Source of the DNA: an uncultured Sphingobacteriales bacterium
Lineage (GTDB): Bacteria; Bacteroidota; Bacteroidia; Chitinophagales; Chitinophagaceae
Assembly (NCBI GenBank): GCA_946479435.1
Contig: CAMLFX010000030.1
Span: 1-30,114, forward strand
Direction: 5' to 3'
Length of the DNA stretch: 30,114 bases
Shown: in pieces, positions 6,372-25,163 of the stretch
How the letters are laid out: every line of letters begins with the position of its first letter
Numbering within the stretch: the stretch's first letter is position 1
The notes under the pieces: model-generated
Database searches by the model: none
Told to the model about the DNA's origin: nothing
Seen by the model: only the letters and a program-made list of their open reading frames with translations
Translations under genes and position numbers: made by a program

Positions 6372-7370
6372 ATGATTTTATCTGATAAAAAAGTTTTAGT
6401 TACAGGTGCTGATGGTTTCATTGGTTCGCATCTTGTAGAGCAGCTAATACAAGAAGGTTGTAAGGTAAAAGCGTTTTGTTATTATAATTCCTTCAACAGT
6501 TGGGGCTGGCTGGATACTTTACCGCAGCAAATTCTTGATCAGATAGAAGTGTTTACCGGCGATATTCGCGACCCTAATGGTGTGCGTACTGCTATGAAGG
6601 GCGTAGATGTAGTATTTCACCTTGCAGCATTAATTGCTATACCATTTAGTTACCATTCCCCCGATTCTTATATTGATACGAACGTAAAGGGTACACTTAA
6701 TATAGTGCAGGCGGCAAAAGATCTTGGTATTGAAAGAGTATTGGTTACATCTACATCGGAAGTGTATGGAACTGCACAGTATATACCTATTGATGAAAAG
6801 CATCCGCGCCAACCGCAATCACCATATTCAGCATCTAAAATTGGTGCAGACTGTATAGCAGATTCATTCTACCGCAGTTTTGATTTGCCACTTACAATAG
6901 TTCGTCCGTTCAATACATTTGGGCCAAGACAATCTGCGAGGGCAGTAATACCTACCATTATCACTCAGTTGCTGAATGGTATGGAGGAAATAAAATTGGG
7001 CGATATTACCCCAACCCGCGATCTGTTGTATGTAAAGGATACCGCTAATGGCTTTATCGAAATAGCTAAATCAGATAAACTTATCGGACACGATTGCAAC
7101 ATTGCTACACAATCTGAAATAACCGTTGGCGATCTTGCACAAGAGCTTATCAATCAGATAAATCCTAAAGCAATAATCATCTCTGATGAACAAAGGCTGC
7201 GCCCTGAAAAATCAGAAGTGTTCCGTTTGTATGGCTCAAACAGCAAGATAAAAGAATACACCAACTGGCAGCAAAAATATAGCTTGAAAGAAGGTTTAGC
7301 CGAAACTGTTACTTGGTTTAGCAATAAAGAAAACCTGAAACAGTATAAAGCCGGTATCTATAATATTTAA
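6372..7370 (+). CDS. legB: NAD-dependent nucleotide-sugar 4,6-dehydratase (LegB type)
   Basis: A 332-residue extended short-chain dehydrogenase. The Rossmann motif is GADGFIG (12-18), the STSE segment (127-130) corresponds to the catalytic S/T-D-E triad of RmlB-type 4,6-dehydratases, and Tyr152/Lys156 form the YxxxK pair. Ser in the middle of the triad is also seen in GDP-mannose dehydratases. In legionaminic acid synthesis LegB converts NDP-GlcNAc to the 4-keto-6-deoxy sugar; GDP is the likely carrier here because ptmE is present. It follows the kinase gene by 14 bases and precedes legC by 2, placing it as the first sugar-synthesis step. Confidence 0.85.
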   Translation: MILSDKKVLVTGADGFIGSHLVEQLIQEGCKVKAFCYYNSFNSWGWLDTLPQQILDQIEVFTGDIRDPNGVRTAMKGVDVVFHLAALIAIPFSYHSPDSYIDTNVKGTLNIVQAAKDLGIERVLVTSTSEVYGTAQYIPIDEKHPRQPQSPYSASKIGADCIADSFYRSFDLPLTIVRPFNTFGPRQSARAVIPTIITQLLNGMEEIKLGDITPTRDLLYVKDTANGFIEIAKSDKLIGHDCNIATQSEITVGDLAQELINQINPKAIIISDEQRLRPEKSEVFRLYGSNSKIKEYTNWQQKYSLKEGLAETVTWFSNKENLKQYKAGIYNI

Positions 7371-7372
7371 TC

Positions 7373-8527
7373 ATGGCAGAAAAATTTGAGCAGATAGTTT
7401 CTTTTATTAAGGAACAATTCCCTCAAAAAAGTTTTATTCCGTTACATGAACCATTGTTTATTGGCAATGAACGGAAATATGTAATGGATGCGATTGATTC
7501 GACATTTGTTTCTTCAGTTGGCGCTTACGTTAATCGCTTTGAAGAAATGATGGCCGAAATAACAGGCGCTAAACATGCAATAGCAATTGTAAATGGTACA
7601 AATGCATTGCACATGGCGTTACTGTTGGCCAATGTGAAAAGAGAAGATGAAGTGATTTGCCAGGCACTGACCTTCATTGCAACTGCTAATGCTATCAGTT
7701 ACATAGGGGCTAAACCTGTGTTTTTAGACGTAGATAAAGATACCTTAGGCTTATCTCCTGAATCACTAAGATCGTTTCTGCAAAACCATACTGAGAAGAA
7801 AGCCGATGGGTTTACTTACAATAAGTTAACAAGCAAAAGAATAGCTGCTTGTGTGCCTATGCATACCTTTGGCCTGCCATGCAGGATAGATGAGATAGCT
7901 GCTATTTGTGATGATTGGAATATAGTTTTGGTTGAAGACGCAGCAGAATCATTGGGTAGCTATTACAAAGGCAAACATACAGGTGTATTTGGCAAGATTG
8001 GCATATTTAGTTTCAACGGTAATAAAACAGTGACTTGTGGTGGTGGTGGTGCATTGGTTACTAATGATGATGACCTGGCAAAAAGAGCAAAGCATTTAAC
8101 CACGCAGGCAAAAGTGCCGCATAAATGGGAGTTCGTACACGATGAGATTGGCTATAATTACCGTATGCCAAACCTAAATGCAGCCTTGGCATGTGCCCAA
8201 TTAGAACAGCTTAAGCCATTTGTAGAGAATAAAAGAGAATTAGCAGAAAAGTATAAGACCTTTTTTGCAACGGAAGGAACTTCATTTATTGATGAACCGG
8301 AGAATAGTAAAGCTAATTATTGGTTGAATGCTGTGGTGTTGAATGACCTGGAAGAGCGAAATGCATTTTTAGAATATACAAATAGCAATGGTGTTATGAC
8401 CCGCCCTGTTTGGGAGCTAATGTACCGGTTGCCAATGTTTAAGAATTGCCAGAAAGATGAAATGGTGAATAGCAATTGGCTGGCAGATAGAATAGTTAAT
8501 ATACCAAGTAGCGTAAGAGCAAATTAA
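7373..8527 (+). CDS. legC: PLP-dependent nucleotide-sugar 4-aminotransferase (LegC type)
   Basis: A 384-residue DegT/DnrJ/EryC1/StrS aminotransferase. The PLP-anchoring Lys218 lies in FSFNGNKT before a glycine run, and EDAAESLG (188-195) supplies the conserved Asp189 that contacts the cofactor ring nitrogen. It should transfer an amino group from glutamate to C4 of the LegB product. Its N-terminal extension (about 20 residues before the PLHEP segment) fits the LegC subgroup. The pairing with legB 2 bases upstream and a hexapeptide acetyltransferase 2 bases downstream matches the order of the chemical steps. Confidence 0.86.
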   Translation: MAEKFEQIVSFIKEQFPQKSFIPLHEPLFIGNERKYVMDAIDSTFVSSVGAYVNRFEEMMAEITGAKHAIAIVNGTNALHMALLLANVKREDEVICQALTFIATANAISYIGAKPVFLDVDKDTLGLSPESLRSFLQNHTEKKADGFTYNKLTSKRIAACVPMHTFGLPCRIDEIAAICDDWNIVLVEDAAESLGSYYKGKHTGVFGKIGIFSFNGNKTVTCGGGGALVTNDDDLAKRAKHLTTQAKVPHKWEFVHDEIGYNYRMPNLNAALACAQLEQLKPFVENKRELAEKYKTFFATEGTSFIDEPENSKANYWLNAVVLNDLEERNAFLEYTNSNGVMTRPVWELMYRLPMFKNCQKDEMVNSNWLADRIVNIPSSVRAN

Positions 8528-8529
8528 TT

Positions 8530-9165
8530 GTGGAAGCAAAACTCATATTATTAGGTGGCGGCGGTCATTGCAAATCTTGCATTGATGTAATTGAGAGCGC
8601 CGGTAATTATGAGATAGCAGGTATACTTGATAAAGAAGAATCCCTCCACACATCTATATTGAGATACAAAGTTATTGGCGCCGACAAGGATATTCTTCAA
8701 TATCATGAAAAGGGCTACCACTTTTTAATAACTGTTGGGCAGATAAAAAATGCCAACATCCGTAAAAAGCTTTTTAAAACACTTACAGATATAGGTGCTG
8801 TTATTGCAACAATAATTTCCCCACATGCAAAGGTTTCAAAATATGCGACGTTGGGTAAAGGAACTATTGTAATGCATAATGCCACAGTAAATGCAGCTGC
8901 AAGAATTGGCGATAATGTTATTATAAATACCGGTGCTAATATCGAACACGATGCTGCTATTGGTAATGACTGCCATATTTCTACAAACGCAGTAATAAAC
9001 GGCGATTGTGTTATTGGTAACGAAGTTTTTATAGGTAGTAATGCAACTATATCAAGCCAGGTAGAAATCGGTGACAATGTCGTTATTGGTGCAGGAGCAG
9101 TAGTCTATAAGAATATTAAACAGCAGGGTACCTATGCTGGTAATCCTGCAAAAATTATAAGCTAA
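8530..9165 (+). CDS. NeuD/PglD-family sugar N-acetyltransferase, candidate LegH step
   Basis: A 211-residue protein starting with GTG two bases after the legC stop. The N-terminal Rossmann-like half has a GGGGH segment (residues 9-13) as in PglD. The C-terminal half (about 95-205) is a left-handed beta-helix of hexapeptide repeats. His140 followed by Asp141 sits at the position of the PglD catalytic base. PglD acetylates the 4-amino group of a UDP-sugar, so this enzyme is inferred to acetylate the new amino group made by LegC. The alternative is O-acetylation of the finished nonulosonic acid, as proposed for NeuD proteins of sialic acid loci. Its stop overlaps the legI start by 1 base. Confidence 0.82.
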   Translation: MEAKLILLGGGGHCKSCIDVIESAGNYEIAGILDKEESLHTSILRYKVIGADKDILQYHEKGYHFLITVGQIKNANIRKKLFKTLTDIGAVIATIISPHAKVSKYATLGKGTIVMHNATVNAAARIGDNVIINTGANIEHDAAIGNDCHISTNAVINGDCVIGNEVFIGSNATISSQVEIGDNVVIGAGAVVYKNIKQQGTYAGNPAKIIS

Positions 9166-10178: not shown

Positions 10179-11150
10179 ATGGAATTAGAGCAATATAAAT
10201 CAGGTGACGAAGTTCAGATATTAGACCTTTTTCATAAGGCCTTTGGGAAAGAGCTGTCACATGAATTTTGGAAGTGGCGCTTTGCAGATAACCCTTTTTT
10301 TGAACCACATTTAATAAACCTGATGTGGGAAGGGGAGGTACTGGCAGGACACTACGCAGTATCGGCAAGTGAAATAGTAATGAATGGTAAAACATATCTG
10401 ACAAGCCTATCGGGTACTACAATGACACACCCTGATTTTGCAGGCAAAGGTATTTTTACCGATCTGGCCTTAACCCTGTACGATAGGATTGCACAAGACT
10501 ATGGTGTGAATATGGTATTAGGTTTTCCTAATAAAAACTCACATTACGGGTTGGTGAAAAAGATAGAATGGAAAGATGTAGCAATACTTCCAACCTTATC
10601 TATCAATTCAGGTAAACTGAAAAATACTGCTAACGATAATGTAAGGCGGATTGAGCGCTTTACTGAAGCGCATAGCTCATTTGCTAATAGCTCGATTGAA
10701 GAACTAGGGTTTTCAATATATACCAACAGGTCAGCGAAATATCTTAACTGGAGATATCTTGATTGTCCGATAAATGATTATAACTGTTTTGAATACATCG
10801 AAGATGGTACTATAAAAGGCATCATCATAACTAAGCGGTTTGCATCTTTTACTACGCCCGGCGAATTTGAGATTGATATTGTAGAAGTTTTCTGTAATGC
10901 AAATATTGGTGTGCTCGATGTACTCATGACTGCTGTAAATTATTTTTATAATATCAAGGGTAATGCGTTCAGTAAAATGAATATGTGGATGTCGGTTTTA
11001 GATGCAAGGCATCTGCTGCTGGAAAAACTTGGTTTCAGTATTGGGCTGCCACTCACATTTATGTGCACCAAAGCATTTAAGCCGGGGTTTGAAGCGATTT
11101 ATAATTATCAAAACTGGTATATCTCTATGGGAGATTCAGATGTTTATTAA
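10179..11150 (+). CDS. GNAT-family acyltransferase in the nonulosonate cassette
   Basis: A 323-residue cytoplasmic protein. The N-terminal half (about 1-160) contains the GNAT acyl-CoA pyrophosphate-binding segment HPDFAGKGIFTDL (around residues 88-100) followed by an amphipathic helix. The second half (about 185-310) also looks like a degenerate GNAT fold, as in the larger two-domain members. It starts 3 bases after legI and ends 8 bases before legG. The position suggests it acylates an amino group on a pathway intermediate or the finished acid. It could perform the LegH step itself or attach a different acyl group. Substrate and acyl donor cannot be read from sequence. Confidence 0.75.
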   Translation: MELEQYKSGDEVQILDLFHKAFGKELSHEFWKWRFADNPFFEPHLINLMWEGEVLAGHYAVSASEIVMNGKTYLTSLSGTTMTHPDFAGKGIFTDLALTLYDRIAQDYGVNMVLGFPNKNSHYGLVKKIEWKDVAILPTLSINSGKLKNTANDNVRRIERFTEAHSSFANSSIEELGFSIYTNRSAKYLNWRYLDCPINDYNCFEYIEDGTIKGIIITKRFASFTTPGEFEIDIVEVFCNANIGVLDVLMTAVNYFYNIKGNAFSKMNMWMSVLDARHLLLEKLGFSIGLPLTFMCTKAFKPGFEAIYNYQNWYISMGDSDVY

Positions 11151-11158
11151 TTAAGAGC

Positions 11159-12325
11159 ATGAACAAAAGGAAGATAATAGCGGTAACAGGTGCCAGGTCA
11201 GATTATGATCTGCTGTTTAAGGTATATGAAAAACTGAATGCTGATGACAGGTTCGATTTTTCAATTATCATAACAGGTCCCAACCTGTCCGATACATTTG
11301 GATATACCGCAAAGAATATTGAGAATGATAATTTTCGCATAGCAGGTAAAATATTTAATCTGGTCGATTCGAACCAAAAAGTGGGCAGGGCTGTTTCAGT
11401 GGGATATCAAATACCATCGCTGGCACATATTCTTTTGCAGGAGCAACCTGATATTGTTTTAGTGGCCGGCGATAGGGAAGAAGCAATTACTGTTACGCTT
11501 ACTTGTGCCTATATGGATATTGCTGTTGCACACTTTTTTGGTGGTGATATTGCGAAAGATGGTAACATTGATAATTCGGTACGCTATGCAGCAAGTAAAT
11601 TTGCGCATATACATTTCCCTTCATTACCAGAACATAGAAATACCTTATTAAAACTAGGTGAAGATGATTGGAGGATATTTGTTGTAGGTAATCCTGCTCT
11701 CGATCGCCTTTTGTCTGTTGAAAACTTATCGCCTGCTGATACCTTTTCAAGGATCACAGATAATAAGAACATTTTGGACTATTGTGTGTTGATACAACAC
11801 TCTATAATAACACAGGTAGAAGAACAAGCAGCACATATAAGGATAACACTTGACAGTGTACTGAAAACAGGATTGCATTGCTTTATCAATTATCCGAATT
11901 CTGATGCCGGTAACAATGCCATTATACTTGCTTACCAGGAGTATGTACAGAAATATCCCGACAAATTTACGCTATTCAAAAACCTGGATCGAACTACTTA
12001 TGTGAACCTGCTGAAAAATGCATTGTTCCTTATTGGCAATTCCAGCTCTGGTTTGGTAGAAGTAGGTTCTCTGGGCTTACCTGCAATAAATGTAGGCGAG
12101 CGTCAGCGTGGCCGCCTGCATGGCGATAACGTAATATTTGTTGATAATGATGAGCAGCAAATATTAAAAGCAATTGATACTGTTTTGCACGATCAGCCAT
12201 TCAGAGATAAGGTAGCACAGAAAATCAACCCTTATGGTGATGGTAACTCTTCGCAAAAGGTTATAGATGTTCTGGCGAGTATTGAATTAGGAAATAAATT
12301 ATTACATAAGAATATTACGTATTAG
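11159..12325 (+). CDS. legG: Hydrolysing nucleotide-sugar 2-epimerase (NeuC family; LegG)
   Basis: A 388-residue GT-B-fold epimerase. TGARSDY near the N-terminus, AGDREE (about 102-107), HFFGGD, the HFPSLPEHR segment, GNPALD, and GNSSSGLVE in the C-terminal nucleotide-binding half are all family signatures. In the legionaminic pathway it releases the nucleotide and inverts C2, giving the 2,4-diacetamido-trideoxymannose that LegI uses. Its order after legI matches the neuB2-neuC2 order of Campylobacter. It is followed by a 23-base gap, one of the wider gaps in the operon, which holds no clear terminator. Confidence 0.88.
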   Translation: MNKRKIIAVTGARSDYDLLFKVYEKLNADDRFDFSIIITGPNLSDTFGYTAKNIENDNFRIAGKIFNLVDSNQKVGRAVSVGYQIPSLAHILLQEQPDIVLVAGDREEAITVTLTCAYMDIAVAHFFGGDIAKDGNIDNSVRYAASKFAHIHFPSLPEHRNTLLKLGEDDWRIFVVGNPALDRLLSVENLSPADTFSRITDNKNILDYCVLIQHSIITQVEEQAAHIRITLDSVLKTGLHCFINYPNSDAGNNAIILAYQEYVQKYPDKFTLFKNLDRTTYVNLLKNALFLIGNSSSGLVEVGSLGLPAINVGERQRGRLHGDNVIFVDNDEQQILKAIDTVLHDQPFRDKVAQKINPYGDGNSSQKVIDVLASIELGNKLLHKNITY

Positions 12326-12348
12326 TTTTACGAAACATATAATTACTC

Positions 12349-12747
12349 ATGTTTACAATAGGTCAAAAAGCAAGCATCACTAAAACTTTCTCGGAAGAAG
12401 AAGTACTTGATTTTTCAAAAAAATCGATGGATGATAATCCTATTCATTTCGATAAAGAATATGCAGCTACTTCGCGTTTCAAACAGCGCATTGTACAAGG
12501 TCCTTTTGTGGCATCATTAATTGGTGGTATACTGGGTTCTAAGCTTCCTGGGCCTGGTACTATATACATCAATCAAACAACTAACTTTTTACTGCCTGTA
12601 TATATCGGTGAAACTGTGACGGCTCATGCAGAAATAGCATCTGTAAGAGAGGATAAACCGGTAATTAAATTGCGCACCTGGGTTGAAAAGGAAAGTGGTG
12701 AAAAGGTGATAGAAGGCGAAGCAACGATATTGTTTTTAGGCGCATAA
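12349..12747 (+). CDS. MaoC-like (R)-specific enoyl-CoA hydratase-type hot-dog protein
   Basis: A 132-residue single hot-dog domain. The segment SMDDNPIHFD (26-35) matches the hydratase signature SGDxNPxH, with Asp28 and His33 as the catalytic pair of PhaJ. The following VQG (49-51) has Gln where many PhaJ enzymes have His. Such enzymes hydrate 2-enoyl-CoA to (R)-3-hydroxyacyl-CoA. A fatty-acyl enzyme inside a sugar operon suggests supply of a 3-hydroxyacyl (for example 3-hydroxybutyryl) donor for N-acylation of the nonulosonic acid; this is inference. It starts 23 bases after legG and ends 10 bases before the deacetylase gene. Confidence 0.85.
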   Translation: MFTIGQKASITKTFSEEEVLDFSKKSMDDNPIHFDKEYAATSRFKQRIVQGPFVASLIGGILGSKLPGPGTIYINQTTNFLLPVYIGETVTAHAEIASVREDKPVIKLRTWVEKESGEKVIEGEATILFLGA

Positions 12748-12757
12748 CACAACAAAA

Positions 12758-13429
12758 ATGAAGAACGTAATTGTAATATCTGCACACCCGGACGATGAAA
12801 TATTAGGTGCAGGCGGTGCAATATTAAAGCATATAGCCAATGGTGATAAAGTTTATTGGTTAATAACAACCAATGTATTTGAATCGCAAGGCTTTTCTAA
12901 AGAGCGTGTAGAAAGCAGGCAGAAAGAAATAGAAAGAGTGGCTGAAAGTGTTGGCATCACTAAAACATTTAAGCTTACTTATCCTACTATGACTTTGTCA
13001 AGCAGCTCCTTGATAAAATTGGTACCTGAAGTATCGGCAATATTTACTGAAGTTAAACCTGAAATAATTTATTGTCTTAACCGTTCGGATGCGCATTCCG
13101 ATCACCGCATTACTTTCGATGCTGTGATGGCATGTACAAAATCTTTCAGATATCCATTTATTAAGCAGGTGCTATTATATGAATGTATATCAGAAACTGA
13201 ATTTGCACCGGCTGTACCTGAGAAAGTATTTATGCCTAACTACTTCATCGATGTCTCTTCATATTTCGATAAAAAGATCGAAATAATGAAAATATACGAA
13301 TCTGAATTAGGTGAGCACCCCTTCCCAAGGAGTGTAAGAAATATGGAAGCACTGGCAACATTTCGTGGTGCTAGCGTAGGTGTAGAATATGCAGAGGCTT
13401 TCCAACTTGTAAAATTCATCGATAAATAA
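12758..13429 (+). CDS. PIG-L/LmbE-family N-deacetylase
   Basis: A 223-residue zinc-dependent deacetylase. AHPDDE (9-14) provides zinc ligands His10 and Asp13 and a general-base Asp. HSDH (113-116) supplies the third ligand, His116. The C-terminal GVEYAEAF segment is typical of LmbE proteins acting on sugar N-acetyl groups. In this setting it probably removes an N-acetyl group from a GlcNAc-type precursor or from the nonulosonic acid, opening an amine for another acyl group. The actual substrate is unknown. Its stop overlaps the start of ptmE by 1 base, so it is coupled to the core pathway. Confidence 0.88.
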   Translation: MKNVIVISAHPDDEILGAGGAILKHIANGDKVYWLITTNVFESQGFSKERVESRQKEIERVAESVGITKTFKLTYPTMTLSSSSLIKLVPEVSAIFTEVKPEIIYCLNRSDAHSDHRITFDAVMACTKSFRYPFIKQVLLYECISETEFAPAVPEKVFMPNYFIDVSSYFDKKIEIMKIYESELGEHPFPRSVRNMEALATFRGASVGVEYAEAFQLVKFIDK

Positions 13430-14478
13430 TGAGCAATCTTATAGACCATATAATCCATAAAGATGAAACTGTACGTGCTGCGTTAACGAAACTGAATAAC
13501 CTGGGGTCTGATGCTATTTTGTTTGTTGTTGACGACGACAGGAAATTAATGGGTTCATTAACAGATGGAGACCTTCGTAGAGGGTTTATTAATAATTTAG
13601 ATTTCGAAGATCCGTTATCGAATTTTATTCAGAAGAATCCTGTGTTCATCACTAAAGGCCATTATGATCTCGATCAACTCGAAACTTACAAGAATAGAAA
13701 TTTTAAAATAATTCCTATACTCGATAATGATCACTGTATAGTTGATATTATCAATTTCAGGATTCAGAAAACGATAATACCCGCTAATGCCGTACTTATG
13801 GCTGGTGGTAAAGGGAAAAGATTATTGCCGCTGACTGCTAATACCCCTAAGCCATTACTAAAGATTGGTGATAAACCTATTATTGAATACAATATCGATA
13901 GACTTATCAGTTACGGTATTAAAAATATTCACTTAAGTATAAATTATCTGGGCGAGCAACTTGTTGAATATTTTGGTGATGGCAATAATAAAAATGCTAA
14001 CATCAAATATGTAAAAGAATCGAAACCGCTAGGTACGGTGGGTTCAGTATTGCTGATAGATGAACATGAGTATGATGATATACTCATAATGAATAGCGAC
14101 TTGCTAACTAATATAGATTTTGCTGATTTTTTTGCGACGTATAAAAAGGCTAATGCTGATATGGCTGTGGCAGCTACCTCTTATTTTGTAGATGTGCCCT
14201 ACGCAGTGCTTGAAACTGATACAGAAAATAATGTACGTTCTTTAAAAGAAAAGCCCAGGTACACTTATTATTCTAATGCAGGTATTTACCTTCTGAAAAA
14301 AAGTCTGTTAGAAAAAATACCTAAAGATGATTTCTTCGATATAACCGATCTGATGGATATCATTTTGAAGGAAAAAAGAAAAATGGTTACCTATCCTATC
14401 ACAGGCTATTGGTTAGATATTGGCAAGCACGAAGATTTTAAAAAAGCACAGGAAGACATAAAGCACATAATATTTTAG
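13429..14478 (+). CDS. ptmE: CBS-domain sugar-1-phosphate nucleotidyltransferase (PtmE type)
   Basis: A 349-residue fusion of two CBS domains (about 8-115, with the GSLTDGDLRRGF motif) and a nucleotidyltransferase domain (about 118-349). The latter has the signature MAGGKGKRLLPLT (124-136) followed by PKPLL, and later the MNSDLLTNID acidic segment. In Campylobacter jejuni PtmE makes the GDP-linked amino sugar that feeds LegB, so its presence argues for a GDP- over a UDP-linked pathway. The CBS pair may sense a nucleotide. It starts inside the deacetylase stop codon and ends 1 base before the acyltransferase-3 gene. Confidence 0.85.
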   Translation: MSNLIDHIIHKDETVRAALTKLNNLGSDAILFVVDDDRKLMGSLTDGDLRRGFINNLDFEDPLSNFIQKNPVFITKGHYDLDQLETYKNRNFKIIPILDNDHCIVDIINFRIQKTIIPANAVLMAGGKGKRLLPLTANTPKPLLKIGDKPIIEYNIDRLISYGIKNIHLSINYLGEQLVEYFGDGNNKNANIKYVKESKPLGTVGSVLLIDEHEYDDILIMNSDLLTNIDFADFFATYKKANADMAVAATSYFVDVPYAVLETDTENNVRSLKEKPRYTYYSNAGIYLLKKSLLEKIPKDDFFDITDLMDIILKEKRKMVTYPITGYWLDIGKHEDFKKAQEDIKHIIF

Positions 14479-14479
14479 T

Positions 14480-15544
14480 ATGTATGAAATAAATAAGAAC
14501 TCTTCATACGCTATAGATGCGGTTAGGGGTGTTTCTGCGCAACTAGTTTTAGTGGGGCATAGCTTGTCATTTTTTGGTTTTTATACAGCGCATCCCAAAC
14601 TACCAATTATTCAAAACCTTGGCGTAGTAATATTTTTTATTCTTTCAGGCTTCCTTATTATTTCTACTATACTTCGCCGTGGTGATGGGTATAGTTTTAA
14701 AGACTATTTTATCGATCGCTTTTCTCGCATTTATGTAGCATATATTCCTGCCTTGATATTTGTATTACTGATGGATAGAATATTTCTTGGCGCAACAAAT
14801 GAATTTACAAACCAGAGCGATTGGTTTGTGTTTGCAGGCAATACCCTGATGTTTCAAAACCACCCGCTTATTAATGCGATATCTCCTAAAGAGATAGAGG
14901 CATTTGGATCTGGCAGGCCATTCTGGACTGTTGCTATTGAGTGGTGGATATACCTGCTTGTGGGGTTTGTTTTTATTTACCTGAAAACAAAAAAGCTGTT
15001 TACCCCCAAAAACCTTTTTTTGTTTTTATTAGTCTTAATTGTTCCATTATATAATATAATAGGTCGTGGACAGGGATTAGTAATAACATGGATATTCGGA
15101 GCCCTGGTGGTTTATTTTGCTACGCTGAATGTGAAGTACAATACAAAGTATGTCTTATTGCTGATGGGTATATGTTGTGTTGCGTGGTTAATGCGGACAC
15201 TGAAATTTTCAGAACAAGATCAATATGACATGGGTATTTCATTTATTGCAGCAGTTTTCTTCTTGCTATTGCTAAAGCTGGCAGAGGTTAGAAATTGGGC
15301 CACAGATATGAATAAGCATGTAAAGTCCTTTTTCATACTTATTGCTAATTATTCATATTCTCTATATCTCGTACACTATACTATAATAATAATACTTGGA
15401 AAGTATTTGCCTAAAAATCAAAATGTGTTTGTACAGTTCGCAATATTATTTTTCACTTCAAACATTATTGCATTCATTTTTTATAGTATGACGGAGAAGC
15501 ACACATACCGATTTAAAAACTTCTTAAAAAACAGGCTACCATGA
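14480..15544 (+). CDS. Membrane acyltransferase-3 family protein
   Basis: A 354-residue integral membrane protein with about ten hydrophobic segments. The N-terminal DAVRGVSAQLVLVGHS stretch has Arg16 and His27 in the R-x10-H spacing that marks acyltransferase-3 enzymes such as O-antigen O-acetylases. It is inferred to O-acylate the polysaccharide or a lipid-linked repeat unit, using acyl-CoA from the cytoplasm. It lies inside the nonulosonate cassette, between ptmE and legF, and overlaps legF by 4 bases (ATGA). This suggests its target is the nonulosonic acid residue and not another sugar of the repeat. Confidence 0.86.
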   Translation: MYEINKNSSYAIDAVRGVSAQLVLVGHSLSFFGFYTAHPKLPIIQNLGVVIFFILSGFLIISTILRRGDGYSFKDYFIDRFSRIYVAYIPALIFVLLMDRIFLGATNEFTNQSDWFVFAGNTLMFQNHPLINAISPKEIEAFGSGRPFWTVAIEWWIYLLVGFVFIYLKTKKLFTPKNLFLFLLVLIVPLYNIIGRGQGLVITWIFGALVVYFATLNVKYNTKYVLLLMGICCVAWLMRTLKFSEQDQYDMGISFIAAVFFLLLLKLAEVRNWATDMNKHVKSFFILIANYSYSLYLVHYTIIIILGKYLPKNQNVFVQFAILFFTSNIIAFIFYSMTEKHTYRFKNFLKNRLP

Positions 15545-17911: not shown

Positions 17912-19312
17912 ATGCTTAAAAAGCTTTTTTCGCATACTGCAATTTATGGGCTAGCACCTCAAATAACGCTCATTGTCAATTTCTTTACACTGCCAATCAT
18001 TACAAAGGATTTGACGGCAACTGATTTTGGTGTGTCTGGTACTCTTACGGCTTATACCAGTGCCATATCTGTACTTGCAATTTTGGGTCTTCGTGTAGTA
18101 TTGGTAAATAGTTTCTACAAATCACCAGAACAGTATAAATGGGCGTGGAGGCAGATATATGGATTTCTTACTCTTTGGAATATTATCTATGCCCTTATAC
18201 TTGGCTTGCTCGTATATTTTGCTGTGCCTGCCGTAGCAGAAAAACATAAATGGATAATTGTCTTTCTAAATGTTACGCCATTGGTTTTTTTCGGCCAAAC
18301 AGCCATTATCGGTCGCACATTTTATCAGCTAAAGCAAAAACCGTTTCAAATAGCAATACGAAGTTTAGTATTTGGAGTATTGACAATAGGTCTAAATATT
18401 ATTTTTATTACAGGCTATAAGATGGGTTATATGGGGTGGTTTTGGTCTGCCTTTATTGTGGGCGTGTTAACTAATGTTTCTTACTGGTATCCCATAAATA
18501 AGAAGTTGAAATTATCGCCAATTTTCAATTTTAAAAAGCGCTTCATAAAACAATCGTTAAAAGTGAGTCTGCCAACTGTTCCTCATTTTTATGCGGGATA
18601 TCTGTTAAATAGCTCGGATAGATTGGTTATGGACCAGCTAGGTATTAGTACCACTGATTTGGGTAAATATAGTGCCGCTAATACATTTGGTACGCTGATG
18701 GATGGGTTTTCAACTGCAACTGGCTGGGCTATTGGTCCCCTTGTAAATGAAAGGTTCAAAGTAAAAGACGACCTGGGTGCAAGAAACATTATCTTTTTAC
18801 TTCAAATTGTTTTTTGGGGGCTCACATTTGTAGCATGTATCTGGTTGAAAGAGATTTTTCATTTAATGATTAGCAATGCAGAGTTAAGTAAAACTTATCC
18901 TCTTGGCATAGTGATGATAATGTCGTTCAACTACAGGCCAATGTATTTTGGCTCTGTAAACAAATTATTCTTTTATGAAAAGACTAACCTGTTATGGCAA
19001 ATAACATTGATAGCAGGTATATTTAATGTTGTGCTTAATTTAATTCTTGTGCCTATAGTAGGGTATGAAGTAGCAGCATTTACAACTTTTGTTGCTTTTA
19101 TGTATATGGGCTTTGCCGGTTTCTTTTATAAGACATTCAGGCAAATCAATACAGTTAATTATCATCCCATTTTATGGCTGGTAGGAAATGTAATACTTCT
19201 GGGTGCAGCTTATCTTGTAGTTGAATTGGGTATCATTTATAAAGTGGTTATCTCTATAGTTGCGCTTGCTATATCAGTACAATACATTAGAAAACTAAAT
19301 AAAACTTTGTAA
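17912..19312 (+). CDS. Wzx-like polysaccharide flippase (MOP superfamily)
   Basis: A 466-residue very hydrophobic protein with about 12-14 predicted membrane helices, opening with the amphipathic segment and TLPIITKDLTATDFG turn found in the Polysacc_synt/RfbX family. It is inferred to flip the undecaprenyl-linked repeat unit to the periplasmic face for polymerisation. Basic residues between the helices fit binding of an acidic, nonulosonate-containing substrate, but that is weak evidence. The gene begins the assembly part of the operon and overlaps the next start by 1 base. Confidence 0.9.
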   Translation: MLKKLFSHTAIYGLAPQITLIVNFFTLPIITKDLTATDFGVSGTLTAYTSAISVLAILGLRVVLVNSFYKSPEQYKWAWRQIYGFLTLWNIIYALILGLLVYFAVPAVAEKHKWIIVFLNVTPLVFFGQTAIIGRTFYQLKQKPFQIAIRSLVFGVLTIGLNIIFITGYKMGYMGWFWSAFIVGVLTNVSYWYPINKKLKLSPIFNFKKRFIKQSLKVSLPTVPHFYAGYLLNSSDRLVMDQLGISTTDLGKYSAANTFGTLMDGFSTATGWAIGPLVNERFKVKDDLGARNIIFLLQIVFWGLTFVACIWLKEIFHLMISNAELSKTYPLGIVMIMSFNYRPMYFGSVNKLFFYEKTNLLWQITLIAGIFNVVLNLILVPIVGYEVAAFTTFVAFMYMGFAGFFYKTFRQINTVNYHPILWLVGNVILLGAAYLVVELGIIYKVVISIVALAISVQYIRKLNKTL

Positions 19313-20787
19313 TGGATTTTAATAGCAGGGAAGAACTCATTAATTTTTTAAGTACAATAGAACGTAAGTATCCTGTAGATACATGGCAGGCTTATGGGGT
19401 TGATCTTTGGCCAATACTTAAAATACAATTGTTCTTCTCCGTATTTAAACAAGCAAACGAACCTTTACCCAAAAAAGAAAGGTATATACGTTTTATCAAT
19501 AAAGTTTTTAAAAAGGTAAATGCTTTAGCAGGTCAGTATAATGTACCTAAAGCAGCAGCTTTGATGAAAAATCTGAAAATAGAGAAGTCAGATATTGCAT
19601 TTGCCGCACCAGCAACAACAAGAGTCAATTGGAAAAATAAGTCATTTAGTAGGTATTTCGATCCTATAATGGATGATTTACAACAAGAAGGTATCAAATC
19701 ATTTCACTACGACTATCTAAGAATAAGCCTTGATAATTCTTATAAAAAAGAAAGACTGCTCGACGTTACAAGTCTGTATCCTTACTTTCAGTTAAAACAT
19801 AAAGCTGCTGTTCAAATCGATCTTTCAAAACATAAAGATCTTGAAGCCTGTCTCGATGAGATCAATAATAGGTATCATCTAAGCAAGAGTGATATTGTGA
19901 AGAAATTAAACAATAATCTTACTGACATATTGATATGGAAAGAGCTTTGGAAACATGTTTTCAGTATACAGCAGCCTAAGATAAGTTTATGCATCTGTTA
20001 CTATAGTAATCCTATGTTTGGTATGTGTGTTGCAGCTGCAGAGGTAGGTATTCGCACAGTAGATATGCAGCATGGGGGTCAGGGATATTTACATCCAGCC
20101 TACTATTTTGCTAACGTAAAAAAAGGCGGTTATAACACTGTGCCCAATTACTTTTGGTCTTGGGATGCGACATCTTTCGATTCATTACAACAGTGGTTGC
20201 CTAAAGACAAAACGCATAGCGCTATACTGGAAGGTAATCCCTGGATAGATTATGTGGCAAACGAAAGCCTTGAAGAATATGTGAGTGACAAAAGAAAAAA
20301 GATATTGCTGACACTGCAGGTAGGTCTTATACCATTATTGCCTCATTTTGTTGTTGATGCAATAAGAAAAACAACTGATGAGTATGTTTGGTGGTTGAGG
20401 TTACACCCAAGAATGACATCAGAGGAAATAAAGCAAATTGTTGCGCTCTTAAAAAAAGAACGGCTTTTTCACAAGGTAGAAATGAAGTTGGCTACCGATT
20501 TGCCTTTGCCAATATTGCTAAATAATTCTGTAGCACATCTGTCAAGCTACTCCGGTAGTATTAATGAAGCTGCTATGATGAGTGTGCCGCTGAATATTAT
20601 TATTCATGAAATTGGGAAAACTACATATACTGGTTTAATAGATAATAAATTAGCAGTATATTTTGATCCTGCAGTCGATGGAAACCTTTTCGACTATATT
20701 ACAAACCATGAAAAGCAAATAACAGAAGGCGTAAAGAAAGAAACGATGAAGAGAGATTACAAAAAGATAATAAATGAACTTATTTAA
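19312..20787 (+). CDS. GT-B-like surface polysaccharide protein, candidate CMP-nonulosonate transferase
   Basis: A 491-residue soluble protein whose family I do not recognise with certainty. The N-terminal half is charged and helical. A central DMQHGG segment (251-256) resembles the HG turn of capsule GT-B enzymes. The C-terminal half has RLHPR (363-367) and SSYSGS (411-416), followed by Glu419. HP and SS/ST motifs in this order contact the CMP moiety in bacterial sialyltransferases (GT38, GT52, GT80), and an HP motif occurs in capsule Kdo transferases. The operon makes a CMP-sugar and no other gene is an obvious user of it, which supports the inference. It overlaps the next gene by 14 bases. 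Confidence 0.6.
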   Translation: MDFNSREELINFLSTIERKYPVDTWQAYGVDLWPILKIQLFFSVFKQANEPLPKKERYIRFINKVFKKVNALAGQYNVPKAAALMKNLKIEKSDIAFAAPATTRVNWKNKSFSRYFDPIMDDLQQEGIKSFHYDYLRISLDNSYKKERLLDVTSLYPYFQLKHKAAVQIDLSKHKDLEACLDEINNRYHLSKSDIVKKLNNNLTDILIWKELWKHVFSIQQPKISLCICYYSNPMFGMCVAAAEVGIRTVDMQHGGQGYLHPAYYFANVKKGGYNTVPNYFWSWDATSFDSLQQWLPKDKTHSAILEGNPWIDYVANESLEEYVSDKRKKILLTLQVGLIPLLPHFVVDAIRKTTDEYVWWLRLHPRMTSEEIKQIVALLKKERLFHKVEMKLATDLPLPILLNNSVAHLSSYSGSINEAAMMSVPLNIIIHEIGKTTYTGLIDNKLAVYFDPAVDGNLFDYITNHEKQITEGVKKETMKRDYKKIINELI

Positions 20788-22630: not shown

Positions 22631-23836
22631 ATGCTTTTTGAGTTAATACTGTTTATTTTAGTTCTTATTTCGGGCCTTACTGTTGCGAAATATTTTTCTC
22701 ATGCTCAGAAAGACATTAAAAGATTAAGGTTACTTTGGCTTTATCATTTATTCTTTTCGTTTGCCTACGCATATCTTACTACATTAGATACCAGTAGCGA
22801 TTCTCTCAAATATTGGAGAGTGGCTAAAACGCTTAATGCTTCGCAAGCATGGGCTTTCTTGTTTGAAGAAAGAGGCACATTGGCAATGTACGCCTTAAAT
22901 TATTTTCCTTCAGCGGTATTAGATTTGTCATACCTATCATTAAGTACTTTATATGCCTTATTTGGGTTTGTAGGTATTTGTTTCTTTTATAGAATAGCTT
23001 CAGATGTGATTCCTCAGAATAGTAAGGTGAAATCAGTTTATCTTTTTCCTACCTTATTCTTTCTCCCTACATTGCATTTCTGGTCATCGGGCGTAGGAAA
23101 AGATACATTGCTTTTTACTTGTGCAGGTGGTTTTGTTTACGCTCTGATGAAAATTGAAAAGCGGTATTTACTGCTATTGTGTTCAATTGGCGCATCATAT
23201 TTTGTAAGACCACACATTACCGTTTATTTATTGCTTTCATTTGCCTTGGCATATTTGGTAAACACTAAAATTCAACTTTACAAGCGTGTTATGTTATCGC
23301 TTTTGCTATTGGGTGCCAGTATAGTTATATTACCTAAGCTTATGGAATTTGCTAAGATTGAAGAGTTATCTCTTGACAGTTATAGTAAATTTGCAGAACA
23401 AAAGGCAGAGATACTAAGTAGGGCAAATGTAGGTTCGAGGGTTGATATGTCTAACTATCCACTACCATTAAAAGTATTTACCTTCCTCTACAGGCCTTTG
23501 TTTTTCGATATAAATAGCTTGCCATCTTTATTGGCATCTATTGAAAACCTTTTCCTGTTATTCTTGTCATATAATGTAATACGCAATAGTCCTGTTAAGG
23601 TTTTCAAGAAAGCGCCATACGTAATAAAAGGATTATTCTTTTATCTCATGCTTGGGGCTACCGTTTCATCTATGTCTTTAGGAAACCTGGGTATTATGAT
23701 ACGTATGCGCAATATGTTTTTGCCCGCTATGCTTATATATATATTGTGGGCGTACTCTTATCAAACACAAAAAATACTAAAAGAAAGGAACCGGCCGATA
23801 GCTAACAAGAAACAAGCTTTAGCTAATACCGTTTAG
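22631..23836 (+). CDS. Wzy/EpsG-like polysaccharide polymerase
   Basis: A 401-residue integral membrane protein with about 10-11 hydrophobic segments. The DTSSDSLKYW stretch (53-62), SSGVGKD (152-158) and FVRPH (191-195) between helices resemble conserved loops of EpsG/Wzy-type polymerases and O-antigen ligases. It is inferred to polymerise lipid-linked repeats in the periplasm. It is the only candidate polymerase in the operon, and the presence of a Wzx-like flippase, a Wzc-like co-polymerase and an OPX channel makes the Wzx/Wzy scheme consistent. It lies 27 bases after the GT4 gene and 1 base before the beta-helix gene. Confidence 0.75.
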   Translation: MLFELILFILVLISGLTVAKYFSHAQKDIKRLRLLWLYHLFFSFAYAYLTTLDTSSDSLKYWRVAKTLNASQAWAFLFEERGTLAMYALNYFPSAVLDLSYLSLSTLYALFGFVGICFFYRIASDVIPQNSKVKSVYLFPTLFFLPTLHFWSSGVGKDTLLFTCAGGFVYALMKIEKRYLLLLCSIGASYFVRPHITVYLLLSFALAYLVNTKIQLYKRVMLSLLLLGASIVILPKLMEFAKIEELSLDSYSKFAEQKAEILSRANVGSRVDMSNYPLPLKVFTFLYRPLFFDINSLPSLLASIENLFLLFLSYNVIRNSPVKVFKKAPYVIKGLFFYLMLGATVSSMSLGNLGIMIRMRNMFLPAMLIYILWAYSYQTQKILKERNRPIANKKQALANTV

Positions 23837-23837
23837 T

Positions 23838-25163
23838 ATGCATATTGTTATAAATACCACCTTATTATTGCTGTTTGCTTTTGTAGCAAATGCCCAAAAG
23901 ATTATCGATGTAAAAAAATTAGGTGCTGTAGGTGATGGTAAGCATAATGATTATCCCGCATTATTAAAAGCAGCACAACTAGCAGCAACAACTAATGGTG
24001 CAGAGATTGTATTTCCTAAAGGCATTTATTTTTTAAACGTTATACATAAAACAGGTAGTTCTGTAAGTGATATCATCTTTAATAACTGTAGTAATCTTAC
24101 TATAAAAGGCAATAACTCTGTAGTAAGGGTTAACGGTAATTTTATAAGAAAAGCGGATAAGATAAAAGGCAATATTAGGTTCAGTAATACACAGGCTATT
24201 ATTCCATTTTATTTTACCGATTGTAAAAATATTACACTAAAAGATATTGAGATTGACGGTAGCGCTGATAAAATGCAACGCGACGAAGGTATAGCGGAAG
24301 GTGGTGGACATTTGATGTTATTTAAGGACTGTGAAGGTGTTACTATTGAGAATGTTTTTGTTCACCATGCGCAGTCAGATGGGGTTTATATAGGCGGCAA
24401 AAAATCTGCAAAGTTCCGGGTTGAAAACCTGCGGTCGTCAAATAATGGCAGGCAAGGAATGTCAATAATACAATTGCTTGGAGGCAACTTTAATAATTGT
24501 AAATTTATAAACACAGGTATTACTGAAGGTAGGTACGGTTCGCATGCACCCAGGGCGGGTGTAGATATTGAGCCAAGGCCAGGGGGCATATCAGTGCGTG
24601 ATATAAAGTTTAGCAATTGCACTTTTGAAAATAATCTGGGCTCACAATTTGTGTGTAGCACACCTAAAAATACTGATAACGTACTGCTTGATAAATGCAG
24701 GCTGGTGGCAGCATCGGGAAGGTCAGCTTACCAGGTATTATTAGCGGCAAGCAACGTGGTGCTTCAAAATTGTTATATAGATTGCGGACCTGGCAATATA
24801 TATCCTATTGCCAATTCCGATCCCGGCAGTTCGGTTACAATAAAAAACTGCACTATAAAAAGCGCGGGGGTAGGTATTATGTCTGTTTCCAAGTTAGGGA
24901 AAGATCAGCTAACTATTGATAACAATACTATCGAATACACCGGTCAAACTCCGGTAAAGAAATACTTTCTATATCTACAAACAGAAGGTGCTACGTTTAC
25001 CAATAACAAAATAATAATACCCACACAATATCAAAGAAAAGGTGCTGCTACATCTTTAATACAGAAAGGTAAAATTGCGTCCGGTAATACATTTTATAGC
25101 GGTAGTAAAATTTCTAAACCAGCAGTATCCTATCAGGGTACGAAAATCGTAAAAGATAAATAA
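23838..25163 (+). CDS. Secreted right-handed beta-helix protein (pectate-lyase-like fold)
   Basis: A 441-residue protein with a Sec signal peptide (1-19, cleavage after ANA). The mature start IDVKKLGAVGDGKHNDYPALLKAA is the Pectate_lyase_3/GH28-type N-cap. Repeating short beta-strands rich in Asn and Gly stacks (about 85-420) fit a parallel beta-helix. Exported beta-helix enzymes in exopolysaccharide loci are usually lyases, hydrolases or epimerases that trim or modify the polymer. No catalytic set can be assigned by eye. Position between the polymerase and a glycosyltransferase suggests its substrate is the polymer made here. Confidence 0.8.
   Translation: MHIVINTTLLLLFAFVANAQKIIDVKKLGAVGDGKHNDYPALLKAAQLAATTNGAEIVFPKGIYFLNVIHKTGSSVSDIIFNNCSNLTIKGNNSVVRVNGNFIRKADKIKGNIRFSNTQAIIPFYFTDCKNITLKDIEIDGSADKMQRDEGIAEGGGHLMLFKDCEGVTIENVFVHHAQSDGVYIGGKKSAKFRVENLRSSNNGRQGMSIIQLLGGNFNNCKFINTGITEGRYGSHAPRAGVDIEPRPGGISVRDIKFSNCTFENNLGSQFVCSTPKNTDNVLLDKCRLVAASGRSAYQVLLAASNVVLQNCYIDCGPGNIYPIANSDPGSSVTIKNCTIKSAGVGIMSVSKLGKDQLTIDNNTIEYTGQTPVKKYFLYLQTEGATFTNNKIIIPTQYQRKGAATSLIQKGKIASGNTFYSGSKISKPAVSYQGTKIVKDK

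What the first reader, a model, noticed from the sequence alone, without database searches (positions are those of the whole stretch)
10179..15544. Candidate acyl-modification module (GNAT, MaoC hydratase, PIG-L deacetylase, acyltransferase-3) interleaved with nonulosonate genes
Four genes not needed for basic legionaminic acid are inserted between legI, legG, ptmE and legF, two of them overlapping core genes by 1 or 4 bases. A coherent reading is deacetylation of one amine, hydration of an enoyl-CoA to a 3-hydroxyacyl-CoA, transfer of that acyl to the amine, and membrane O-acylation. 3-Hydroxybutyryl groups on nonulosonic acids are known in Gram-negative glycans, but I know of no described locus with this set.
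Basis: inference. Interest (0 to 1): 0.75.

Follow-up and report, generated by a model that had tools for sequence, protein, structure and literature searches.

The report
Sugar acyl-swap gene cassette
In a bacterial surface-sugar gene cluster, a set of linked enzymes looks built to remove an acetyl group from legionaminic acid (a bacterial sialic-acid-like sugar) and put a 3-hydroxybutyryl group there instead, and similar sets made of unrelated enzymes occur in other bacteria.

Summary
In detail: GNAT, MaoC, PIG-L and acyltransferase-3 genes lie where stated in a Bacteroidota polysaccharide locus. The most similar plain leg locus examined (L138) has the same order without them; its other core genes are 55-80% identical, but its LegG only 32%. 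So LegG changed with the insert. The supported cassette is GNAT + variant LegG + PIG-L, with MaoC as an add-on. AT3 is not linked to it. MaoC resembles PhaJ, an (R)-specific enoyl-CoA hydratase, with its catalytic motif intact. 15 of 31 near GNAT rows share a contig length with a listed MaoC; 0 of 89 distant ones do. The near clade has Gly where most distant ones have Met, in the strand before the CoA loop. In 14 glycan-type MaoC loci, picked after inspection, MaoC adjoins an acyltransferase; 11 also hold a deacetylase of one of two unrelated families. My reading is an N-acyl swap: PIG-L frees an amine, MaoC makes (R)-3-hydroxybutyryl-CoA, GNAT transfers it, and the variant LegG accepts the product. 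LegH is kept, which points to N5. Acinetobacter is reported to make Leg5Ac7(3-hydroxybutanoyl), so the product class is known; the route appears new. No chemistry was tested.

The parts
6372..7370 (+). LegB, NAD-dependent 4,6-dehydratase
   Evidence: TIGR04180 506.5 bits, cut-off 475
7373..8527 (+). LegC aminotransferase (makes the C4 amine, later N7)
   Evidence: TIGR04181 561.5 bits, cut-off 420
8530..9165 (+). LegH, NeuD/PglD-type N-acetyltransferase, retained beside the cassette
   Evidence: TIGR03570 225.4 bits, cut-off 160.8; 60% identical to LegH of L138
9165..10175 (+). LegI, nonulosonate synthase
   Evidence: TIGR03569 500.4 bits, cut-off 399.65
10179..11150 (+). GNAT, two-domain GNAT fold, N-acyltransferase candidate; Gly79 in the strand before the CoA loop
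   Evidence: PF13527 44.4 bits; AlphaFold2 pLDDT 93.6; Foldseek: N-myristoyltransferases and two-domain GNATs 2ozg, 3n7z, 2hv2; residue 79 and tree
11159..12325 (+). variant LegG (hydrolysing 2-epimerase family) that co-occurs with PIG-L and GNAT
   Evidence: TIGR03568 369.8 bits; 72% to L141 and Taibaiella, 32% to L138; tree and motif
12349..12747 (+). MaoC, PhaJ-like (R)-specific enoyl-CoA hydratase candidate
   Evidence: best PDB sequence match 1iq6, (R)-specific enoyl-CoA hydratase, 3.1e-32; the two best plasmid matches directly follow phaC in Vibrio; D28 and H33 invariant in 32 aligned sequences
12758..13429 (+). PIG-L N-deacetylase candidate
   Evidence: PF02585 84.8 bits; HPDDE and AHSDH motifs in the translation; PDB: diacetylchitobiose deacetylase and BshB-type enzymes
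13429..14478 (+). PtmE-like, CBS + nucleotidyltransferase
   Evidence: PF00571 and PF00483
14480..15544 (+). membrane acyltransferase-3; in this operon only, not part of the recurring cassette
   Evidence: PF01757 93.0 bits; no BLAST relative in L138, L136, L141, Taibaiella, G1345, L123
15541..16263 (+). LegF-like CMP-nonulosonate synthetase
   Evidence: PseF model 95.3 bits, below its cut-off; 59% to the gene in L138
16263..17186 (+). PtmF-like Gfo/Idh/MocA oxidoreductase
   Evidence: Pfam; 55% to L138
17156..17902 (+). PtmA-like SDR
   Evidence: Pfam; 69% to L138

Best explanation
GNAT, the variant LegG, PIG-L and MaoC form an N-acyl-swap cassette inside a legionaminic acid pathway. PIG-L removes an N-acetyl group from a nucleotide-linked precursor, most likely the C2 acetamide that becomes N5. 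MaoC hydrates crotonyl-CoA to (R)-3-hydroxybutyryl-CoA. GNAT transfers that acyl group to the freed amine. The variant LegG is a 2-epimerase/hydrolase adapted to this substrate. LegH still acetylates the amine made by LegC, which becomes N7. Expected product: CMP-Leg5[(R)-3-hydroxybutyryl]7Ac. Shown: gene content, families, intact catalytic motifs, co-variation, recurrence. Inferred: acyl identity, position and order of steps.
For: LegG follows the cassette and not the backbone. GNAT, variant LegG and PIG-L recur together in Taibaiella and G1345, and with MaoC in L141. 15 of 31 near GNAT rows share a longest-contig length with a listed MaoC against 0 of 89 distant ones; Gly79 in 31 of 31 near rows, Met in 84 of 91 distant ones; near clade SH-aLRT 100. 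MaoC is PhaJ-like. Analogous sets from unrelated parts: CE4 deacetylase-MaoC-GNAT near neuB/neuC-type genes; PIG-L, MaoC and a hexapeptide acyltransferase; MaoC-GNAT-formyltransferase-PIG-L-NeuB-like in Salinimicrobium L004. L129 has one formyltransferase in LegH's place and a second directly before PIG-L, as expected if PIG-L makes a second amine.
Against: No product structure or enzyme assay was available. In Taibaiella the only NeuD-type enzyme over the cut-off lies about 18 kb from PIG-L, beside an aminotransferase, so GNAT could act at C4 there. L129 has PIG-L with an ordinary LegG. L123 has a 3-hydroxyacyl-CoA dehydrogenase beside its GNAT but Met at position 79, and that GNAT matches only residues 8-132. 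Gly79 may be one inherited change. In Acinetobacter the 3-hydroxybutanoyl group of legionaminic acid is at N7 (PMC9676051), and there the enzyme reported to change with the acyltransferase is called a synthetase, not the epimerase (PMC3628348). One CE4-MaoC-GNAT locus (L028) also holds an aminotransferase.
Confidence: 0.6

Rival explanations
1. The 3-hydroxybutyryl group is put on the C4 amine (N7), as in Acinetobacter, by GNAT after LegC; PIG-L removes acetyl groups that LegH added first, or acts on another sugar.
For: Acinetobacter lgaABCHIFG is assigned Leg5Ac7R (PMC9676051). In Gillisia L003 the MaoC gene follows a hexapeptide acyltransferase that sits directly after LegC, in the position of LegH. 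Taibaiella has no LegH within its leg operon.
Against: A LegH-type gene lies in the leg genes or the cassette in the window, L141, L123 and G1345. PIG-L is 67-78% identical in L141, Taibaiella and G1345, so a bystander role is unlikely. CE4-MaoC-GNAT occurs next to neuB/neuC-type genes with no LegB/LegC among the five genes upstream (L017) and no BLAST hit to them in the locus; if that sugar is sialic acid it has one nitrogen, N5.
Confidence: 0.25
2. The cassette makes a different acyl amide: MaoC supplies another (R)-3-hydroxyacyl-CoA, or runs as a dehydratase.
For: MaoC-family substrate range cannot be read from sequence; the best NCBIfam match is far below its cut-off (105.6 of 282).
Against: Closest solved relative by sequence is 1iq6, and the two best plasmid relatives sit directly after phaC, where the monomer is (R)-3-hydroxyacyl-CoA.
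Confidence: 0.15
3. The genes serve other sugars of the same polysaccharide or are chance neighbours in a variable locus.
For: Polysaccharide loci are mosaic, and close relatives are rare: GNAT (E <= 1e-60) in 1 of 300 and 0 of 397 genomes; LegG (E <= 1e-90) in 1 of 395, 0 of 119, 1 of 147, 1 of 4 and 2 of 188. The single hits are the centre G001 itself, and G1207 is counted. AT3 fits this reading.
Against: Order GNAT-LegG-PIG-L in Taibaiella, G1345 and L123, and with MaoC in between in the window, and co-variation with LegG, an enzyme of the nonulosonate pathway itself.
Confidence: 0.1

Closest known systems
Acinetobacter baumannii lgaABCHIFG (Leg5Ac7R) versus lgaABCDEFG (Leg5Ac7Ac), and psaABCGHF versus psaABCDEF
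   Same: A changed acyltransferase comes with a second changed pathway enzyme, and the product is assigned (R)-3-hydroxybutanoyl (PMC9676051). PMC3628348 argues that a differently acylating PsaE changes the substrate of the UDP-cleaving PsaD. Passages read only.
   Different: N7 rather than the N5 proposed here. In the lga case the second changed enzyme is called a synthetase (LgaD/LgaH), while here the epimerase LegG changed and LegI did not. The module names list no hydratase or deacetylase, and one N-acyltransferase instead of two.
Campylobacter jejuni cj1321-cj1326 flagellar island
   Same: [quoted passage not shown] also PMC3487957 and PMC13130089; passages only). I recall hydroxyacyl dehydrogenase/dehydratase annotations there; no call confirmed this.
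   Different: Gene set not compared here; the primary paper (PMC2687346) is not held.
Anthrose operon of the Bacillus cereus group
   Same: Recalled only: enoyl-CoA hydratase plus acyltransferase decorating a 4-amino sugar.
   Different: Amine from transamination, not deacetylation (recalled); none of the six papers listed contains the word anthrose.
PhaJ of polyhydroxyalkanoate synthesis
   Same: Best PDB sequence match and shared Asp/His motif.
   Different: No phaC was seen among the locus genes scanned; the setting is a glycan locus.
BshB-type PIG-L deacetylases
   Same: PIG-L family with the metal-binding motifs.
   Different: Below the BshB1 cut-off (72.8 of 182.5).

Membership tests
legionaminic acid biosynthesis locus | LegB, LegC, LegH, LegI, LegG over curated cut-offs | tested here: met
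   the LegI and LegG models are named for neuraminate enzymes and do not tell Leg from Neu
legionaminic acid biosynthesis locus | CMP-nonulosonate synthetase over a curated cut-off | tested here: inconclusive
   PseF 95.3 of 205.7; 59% to the L138 gene in the same position
legionaminic acid biosynthesis locus | legionaminic acid in the polysaccharide | not testable with these tools
   needs chemistry
PhaJ-type (R)-specific enoyl-CoA hydratase | D-x-N-P-x-H catalytic motif (roles recalled) | tested here: met
   D28, N30 and H33 invariant, P31 in at least 90% of 32 sequences; aligned with 1iq6
PhaJ-type (R)-specific enoyl-CoA hydratase | makes (R)-3-hydroxybutyryl-CoA | not testable with these tools
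   needs assay
PIG-L deacetylase | Pfam PF02585 over cut-off and HPDDE / HxDH motifs | tested here: met
   84.8 of 28.2 bits; motifs in the translation
BshB1 bacillithiol deacetylase | TIGR04001 over cut-off | tested here: not met
   72.8 of 182.5
Acinetobacter Leg5Ac7R-type locus | single N-acyltransferase replacing the acetyltransferase | tested here: not met
   LegH and GNAT both present
Acinetobacter Leg5Ac7R-type locus | the same second enzyme (called synthetase, LgaD/LgaH) changes with the acyltransferase | tested here: inconclusive
   here LegG changes and LegI does not; no Acinetobacter sequence was compared

The most novel reading that the evidence does not exclude
N-acyl swapping (an N-deacetylase, an acyl-CoA-making enzyme and an N-acyltransferase) is a portable module that bacteria have assembled several times from unrelated proteins (PIG-L or CE4; MaoC, 3-hydroxyacyl-CoA dehydrogenase or a formyl donor; tandem GNAT, single GNAT, hexapeptide enzyme or formyltransferase) to rewrite the N5 group of nonulosonic acids. 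In one lineage it comes with a dedicated 2-epimerase, and here yields Leg5[(R)-3-hydroxybutyryl]7Ac.
Probability: 0.4. Interest if true: 0.72.

Novelty: new variant of a known kind. Interest (0 to 1): 0.58.

Why it matters
Nonulosonic acids differ largely in their N-acyl groups, and how those groups are chosen is known for few loci. If right, acyl identity and position could be predicted from genes: an acyltransferase after LegC sets N7, while a deacetylase with its partner acyltransferase resets N5. It also gives a role to PIG-L, CE4 and MaoC genes in glycan loci, and the purified enzymes could make new sialic-acid-like sugars.

Tried and rejected
AT3 as part of the module: no BLAST relative in six compared loci; left as an operon neighbour, probably O-acylation. 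PIG-L as bacillithiol BshB: below cut-off. GNAT as LegH replacement: a LegH-type gene is kept in the window, L141, L123 and G1345, unclear in Taibaiella. Gly79 as a universal gate: not met in L123. GNAT in the genomes of five MaoC loci: a close copy in G001 only, weak or no match in the other four; none in the genome of L002. Plasmid search with the Flavobacterium-type GNAT: no match. Plasmid search with its MaoC: 358 records, the 12 listed are MaoC or phosphate-acetyltransferase-fused proteins. Whole genome of the window: not held. Papers searched; the search for legionaminic acid with MaoC gave 0 papers.

Limits. The 29 LegB loci include G001, the centre of the search, already known to hold MaoC; without it MaoC is in 0 of 28 and a GNAT relative in 1 of 28 (L123). 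PIG-L relatives are in 5 of 29: L141 70%, L129 46%, L123 45%, L128 26%, L125 23%. Seven of the 29 regions are shorter than 20 kb, so absences are not all firm. The 14 glycan MaoC loci were picked after seeing their genes, out of 80 loci; one search printed only the first 30. The control is 100 of 162 neighbour proteins: 12 loci without a callable ORF, 10 with long ORFs, four long neighbours and everything after L054 were left out. Only 25 of its 105 families were printed, down to two members, so acyltransferase families with two or fewer members may be hidden. One long neighbour of L006 was left out of A4, and 25 of 38 families were printed there. Contig sharing rests on equal longest-contig lengths in printed tables of the best 120 rows, not on contig names. 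Taibaiella koreensis as the source of G1207 rests on the contig length 680615 and the protein names. The cassette LegG group without L123 has weak support (55/51); with L123 it is 100/99, but L123 is a long branch.
Full report
WHAT IS THERE. The window is a Bacteroidota-like Wza/Wzc-type polysaccharide locus (the phylum follows from the relatives): Wza 3203, Wzc 4006, LegB 6372, LegC 7373, LegH 8530, LegI 9165, GNAT 10179, LegG 11159, MaoC 12349, PIG-L 12758, PtmE 13429, AT3 14480, LegF 15541, PtmF 16263, PtmA 17156, flippase family 17912.

INSERTION AND A CHANGED LEGG. I searched LegB (TIGR04180) in 395 Bacteroidota genomes: 25 were over the cut-off. I fetched 29 regions, those 25 and the next 4. 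L138 has the same gene order as the window without GNAT, MaoC, PIG-L or AT3; identities are LegB 80, LegC 74, LegH 60, LegI 74, PtmE 70, LegF 59, PtmF 55, PtmA 69, but LegG 32%. L141 (genome G001), Taibaiella and G1345 have LegG at 72, 72 and 54% and PIG-L at 70, 78 and 67%. A LegG tree of 39 rows puts the window with these three and 13 database LegGs, together with L123, at 100/99 support; the 17 without L123 have 55/51, need one change on the tree, and 0 of 500 shuffles are as low. All 17 read GGD-[IV]-[AV]-KDGNIDN...RY in the aligned loop; Arg-Tyr is in 0 of the other 22, and a loop of the same length in 2 of 22 (L122, L123). The database LegGs were picked from the closest relatives (13 of the 120 listed). 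G001 was the centre of the draw and was known beforehand to hold MaoC, so it is not an independent observation.

THE CASSETTE. G1345 carries GNAT-LegG-PIG-L-LegH as a run on one strand with LegF and PtmE beside it on the other; no LegB, LegC or LegI was found in the stretch fetched, which ends at the contig end. Taibaiella has LegB-LegC-LegI-GNAT-LegG-PIG-L-PtmE-LegF and no MaoC. L141 has LegH-LegG-PIG-L-PtmE-LegF and further on LegI-GNAT-MaoC. L123 has LegC, LegH, LegI, an ORF6N protein, a 3-hydroxyacyl-CoA dehydrogenase, a distant GNAT (33% over residues 8-132), LegG (37%), PIG-L (45%) and PtmE. Close relatives are rare; the genome counts are under the third rival.

MAOC AND THE GNAT CLADES. 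MaoC matches 1iq6, the (R)-specific enoyl-CoA hydratase, at 3.1e-32, and its two best plasmid relatives follow phaC in Vibrio. Of 31 near GNAT rows (43-91% identity) 15 share a longest-contig length with a listed MaoC, and of 89 more distant rows none does; 13 and 11 share one with a listed LegG. The GNAT model is confident (pLDDT 93.6), nearest by Foldseek to N-myristoyltransferases and two-domain GNATs (TM-scores about 0.6-0.7), with no significant sequence relative in the PDB. Residue 79 lies in strand 71-83, just before the D-F-A-G-K-G stretch: Gly in 31 of 31 near rows and the window; Met 84, Leu 5, Val 1, Gly 1 of 91 others. The near clade has SH-aLRT 100. By the usual GNAT pattern (recalled; not measured on coordinates) this strand position faces the acyl group, so Met to Gly would make room for a larger acyl. 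The distant GNAT of L123 has Met there despite its dehydrogenase neighbour, which counts against a general rule.

INDEPENDENT ASSEMBLIES. In 14 MaoC loci in glycan clusters (L001-L008, L017, L021, L023, L026-L028; chosen from 80 after seeing their genes) a GNAT or hexapeptide acyltransferase adjoins MaoC in 14. A PIG-L or CE4 deacetylase lies in the same locus in 11: PIG-L in L001 (about 7 kb away), L002 (three genes away, BLAST only) and L004-L007; CE4 in L017, L021, L023, L027, L028 (GNAT and CE4 of L023 and GNAT of L028 from tallies and gene position). The three without one are L003, L008 and L026; in L003 and L026 an aminotransferase is next to the acyltransferase-MaoC pair. Among 100 control neighbours of other MaoC genes, none of the 25 families printed (six to two members) is an acyltransferase or such a deacetylase. 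In L017 the CE4-MaoC-GNAT trio follows neuB-type, neuC-type and CMP-synthetase genes, with methyltransferase, GINT1-like, asparagine synthase and two glycosyltransferase genes upstream and no LegB/LegC. In L129 a formyltransferase stands in LegH's place and a second one just before PIG-L. These fit one rule: each free amine has its own acyltransferase, and PIG-L or CE4 makes the second amine.

MECHANISM. Nucleotide-linked 2,4-diacetamido-trideoxyglucose is the likely substrate: PIG-L-family enzymes act on 2-acetamido sugars (established for the family; relatives), LegH is kept for the C4 amine, and LegG, which works at C2, is the core enzyme that changed while LegI did not (74% to both L138 and Taibaiella). 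Hence N5. The N7 alternative follows Acinetobacter (PMC9676051, PMC3628348; passages only). Position and acyl identity remain inference.

NOVELTY. Genes for 3-hydroxybutanoyl legionaminic acid, and co-variation of the acyltransferase with a second pathway enzyme, are described in Acinetobacter. I found no paper holding both legionaminic acid and MaoC (0 papers), and saw none describing the deacetylase-hydratase-acyltransferase set in the listings or in the passages of five papers on Campylobacter and Acinetobacter. The library lacks most subscription papers, so this is weak evidence of absence.

Noticed in passing
L123 8644-9507 (-): 3-hydroxyacyl-CoA dehydrogenase between LegI and a distant GNAT in a leg locus with PIG-L: a possible second source of hydroxyacyl-CoA, perhaps of the other stereochemistry (recalled for the family).
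   Followed up: partly
L129 10952-11842 and 7916-8794 (-): Two formyltransferases in one leg locus, one in LegH's place and one beside PIG-L: predicts a 5,7-di-N-formyl legionaminic acid.
   Followed up: partly
L017 6239-11224, also L021, L023, L028: neuB/neuC-type genes with CE4 deacetylase, MaoC and a 277-279 aa GNAT; predicts an N5 3-hydroxyacyl sialic acid.
   Followed up: partly
L028: Record titled Rhizobium MAG, but the MaoC stretch has the same neighbours and spacing as Flavobacterium loci L021 and L023; possibly a mis-binned contig.
   Followed up: no
L004 9989-13358: Salinimicrobium: MaoC, small GNAT, formyltransferase, PIG-L and a NeuB-like gene in a row; recalls the hydroxybutyryl/formyl pseudaminic acid of Pseudomonas pilin (recalled).
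   Followed up: partly
window 19312-20787 and 22631-23836: Two proteins without a Pfam match in a polysaccharide locus; one may be the Wzy polymerase.
   Followed up: no
window 23838-25163: Pectate-lyase-like (RHGA epimerase) protein inside the polysaccharide locus.
   Followed up: no
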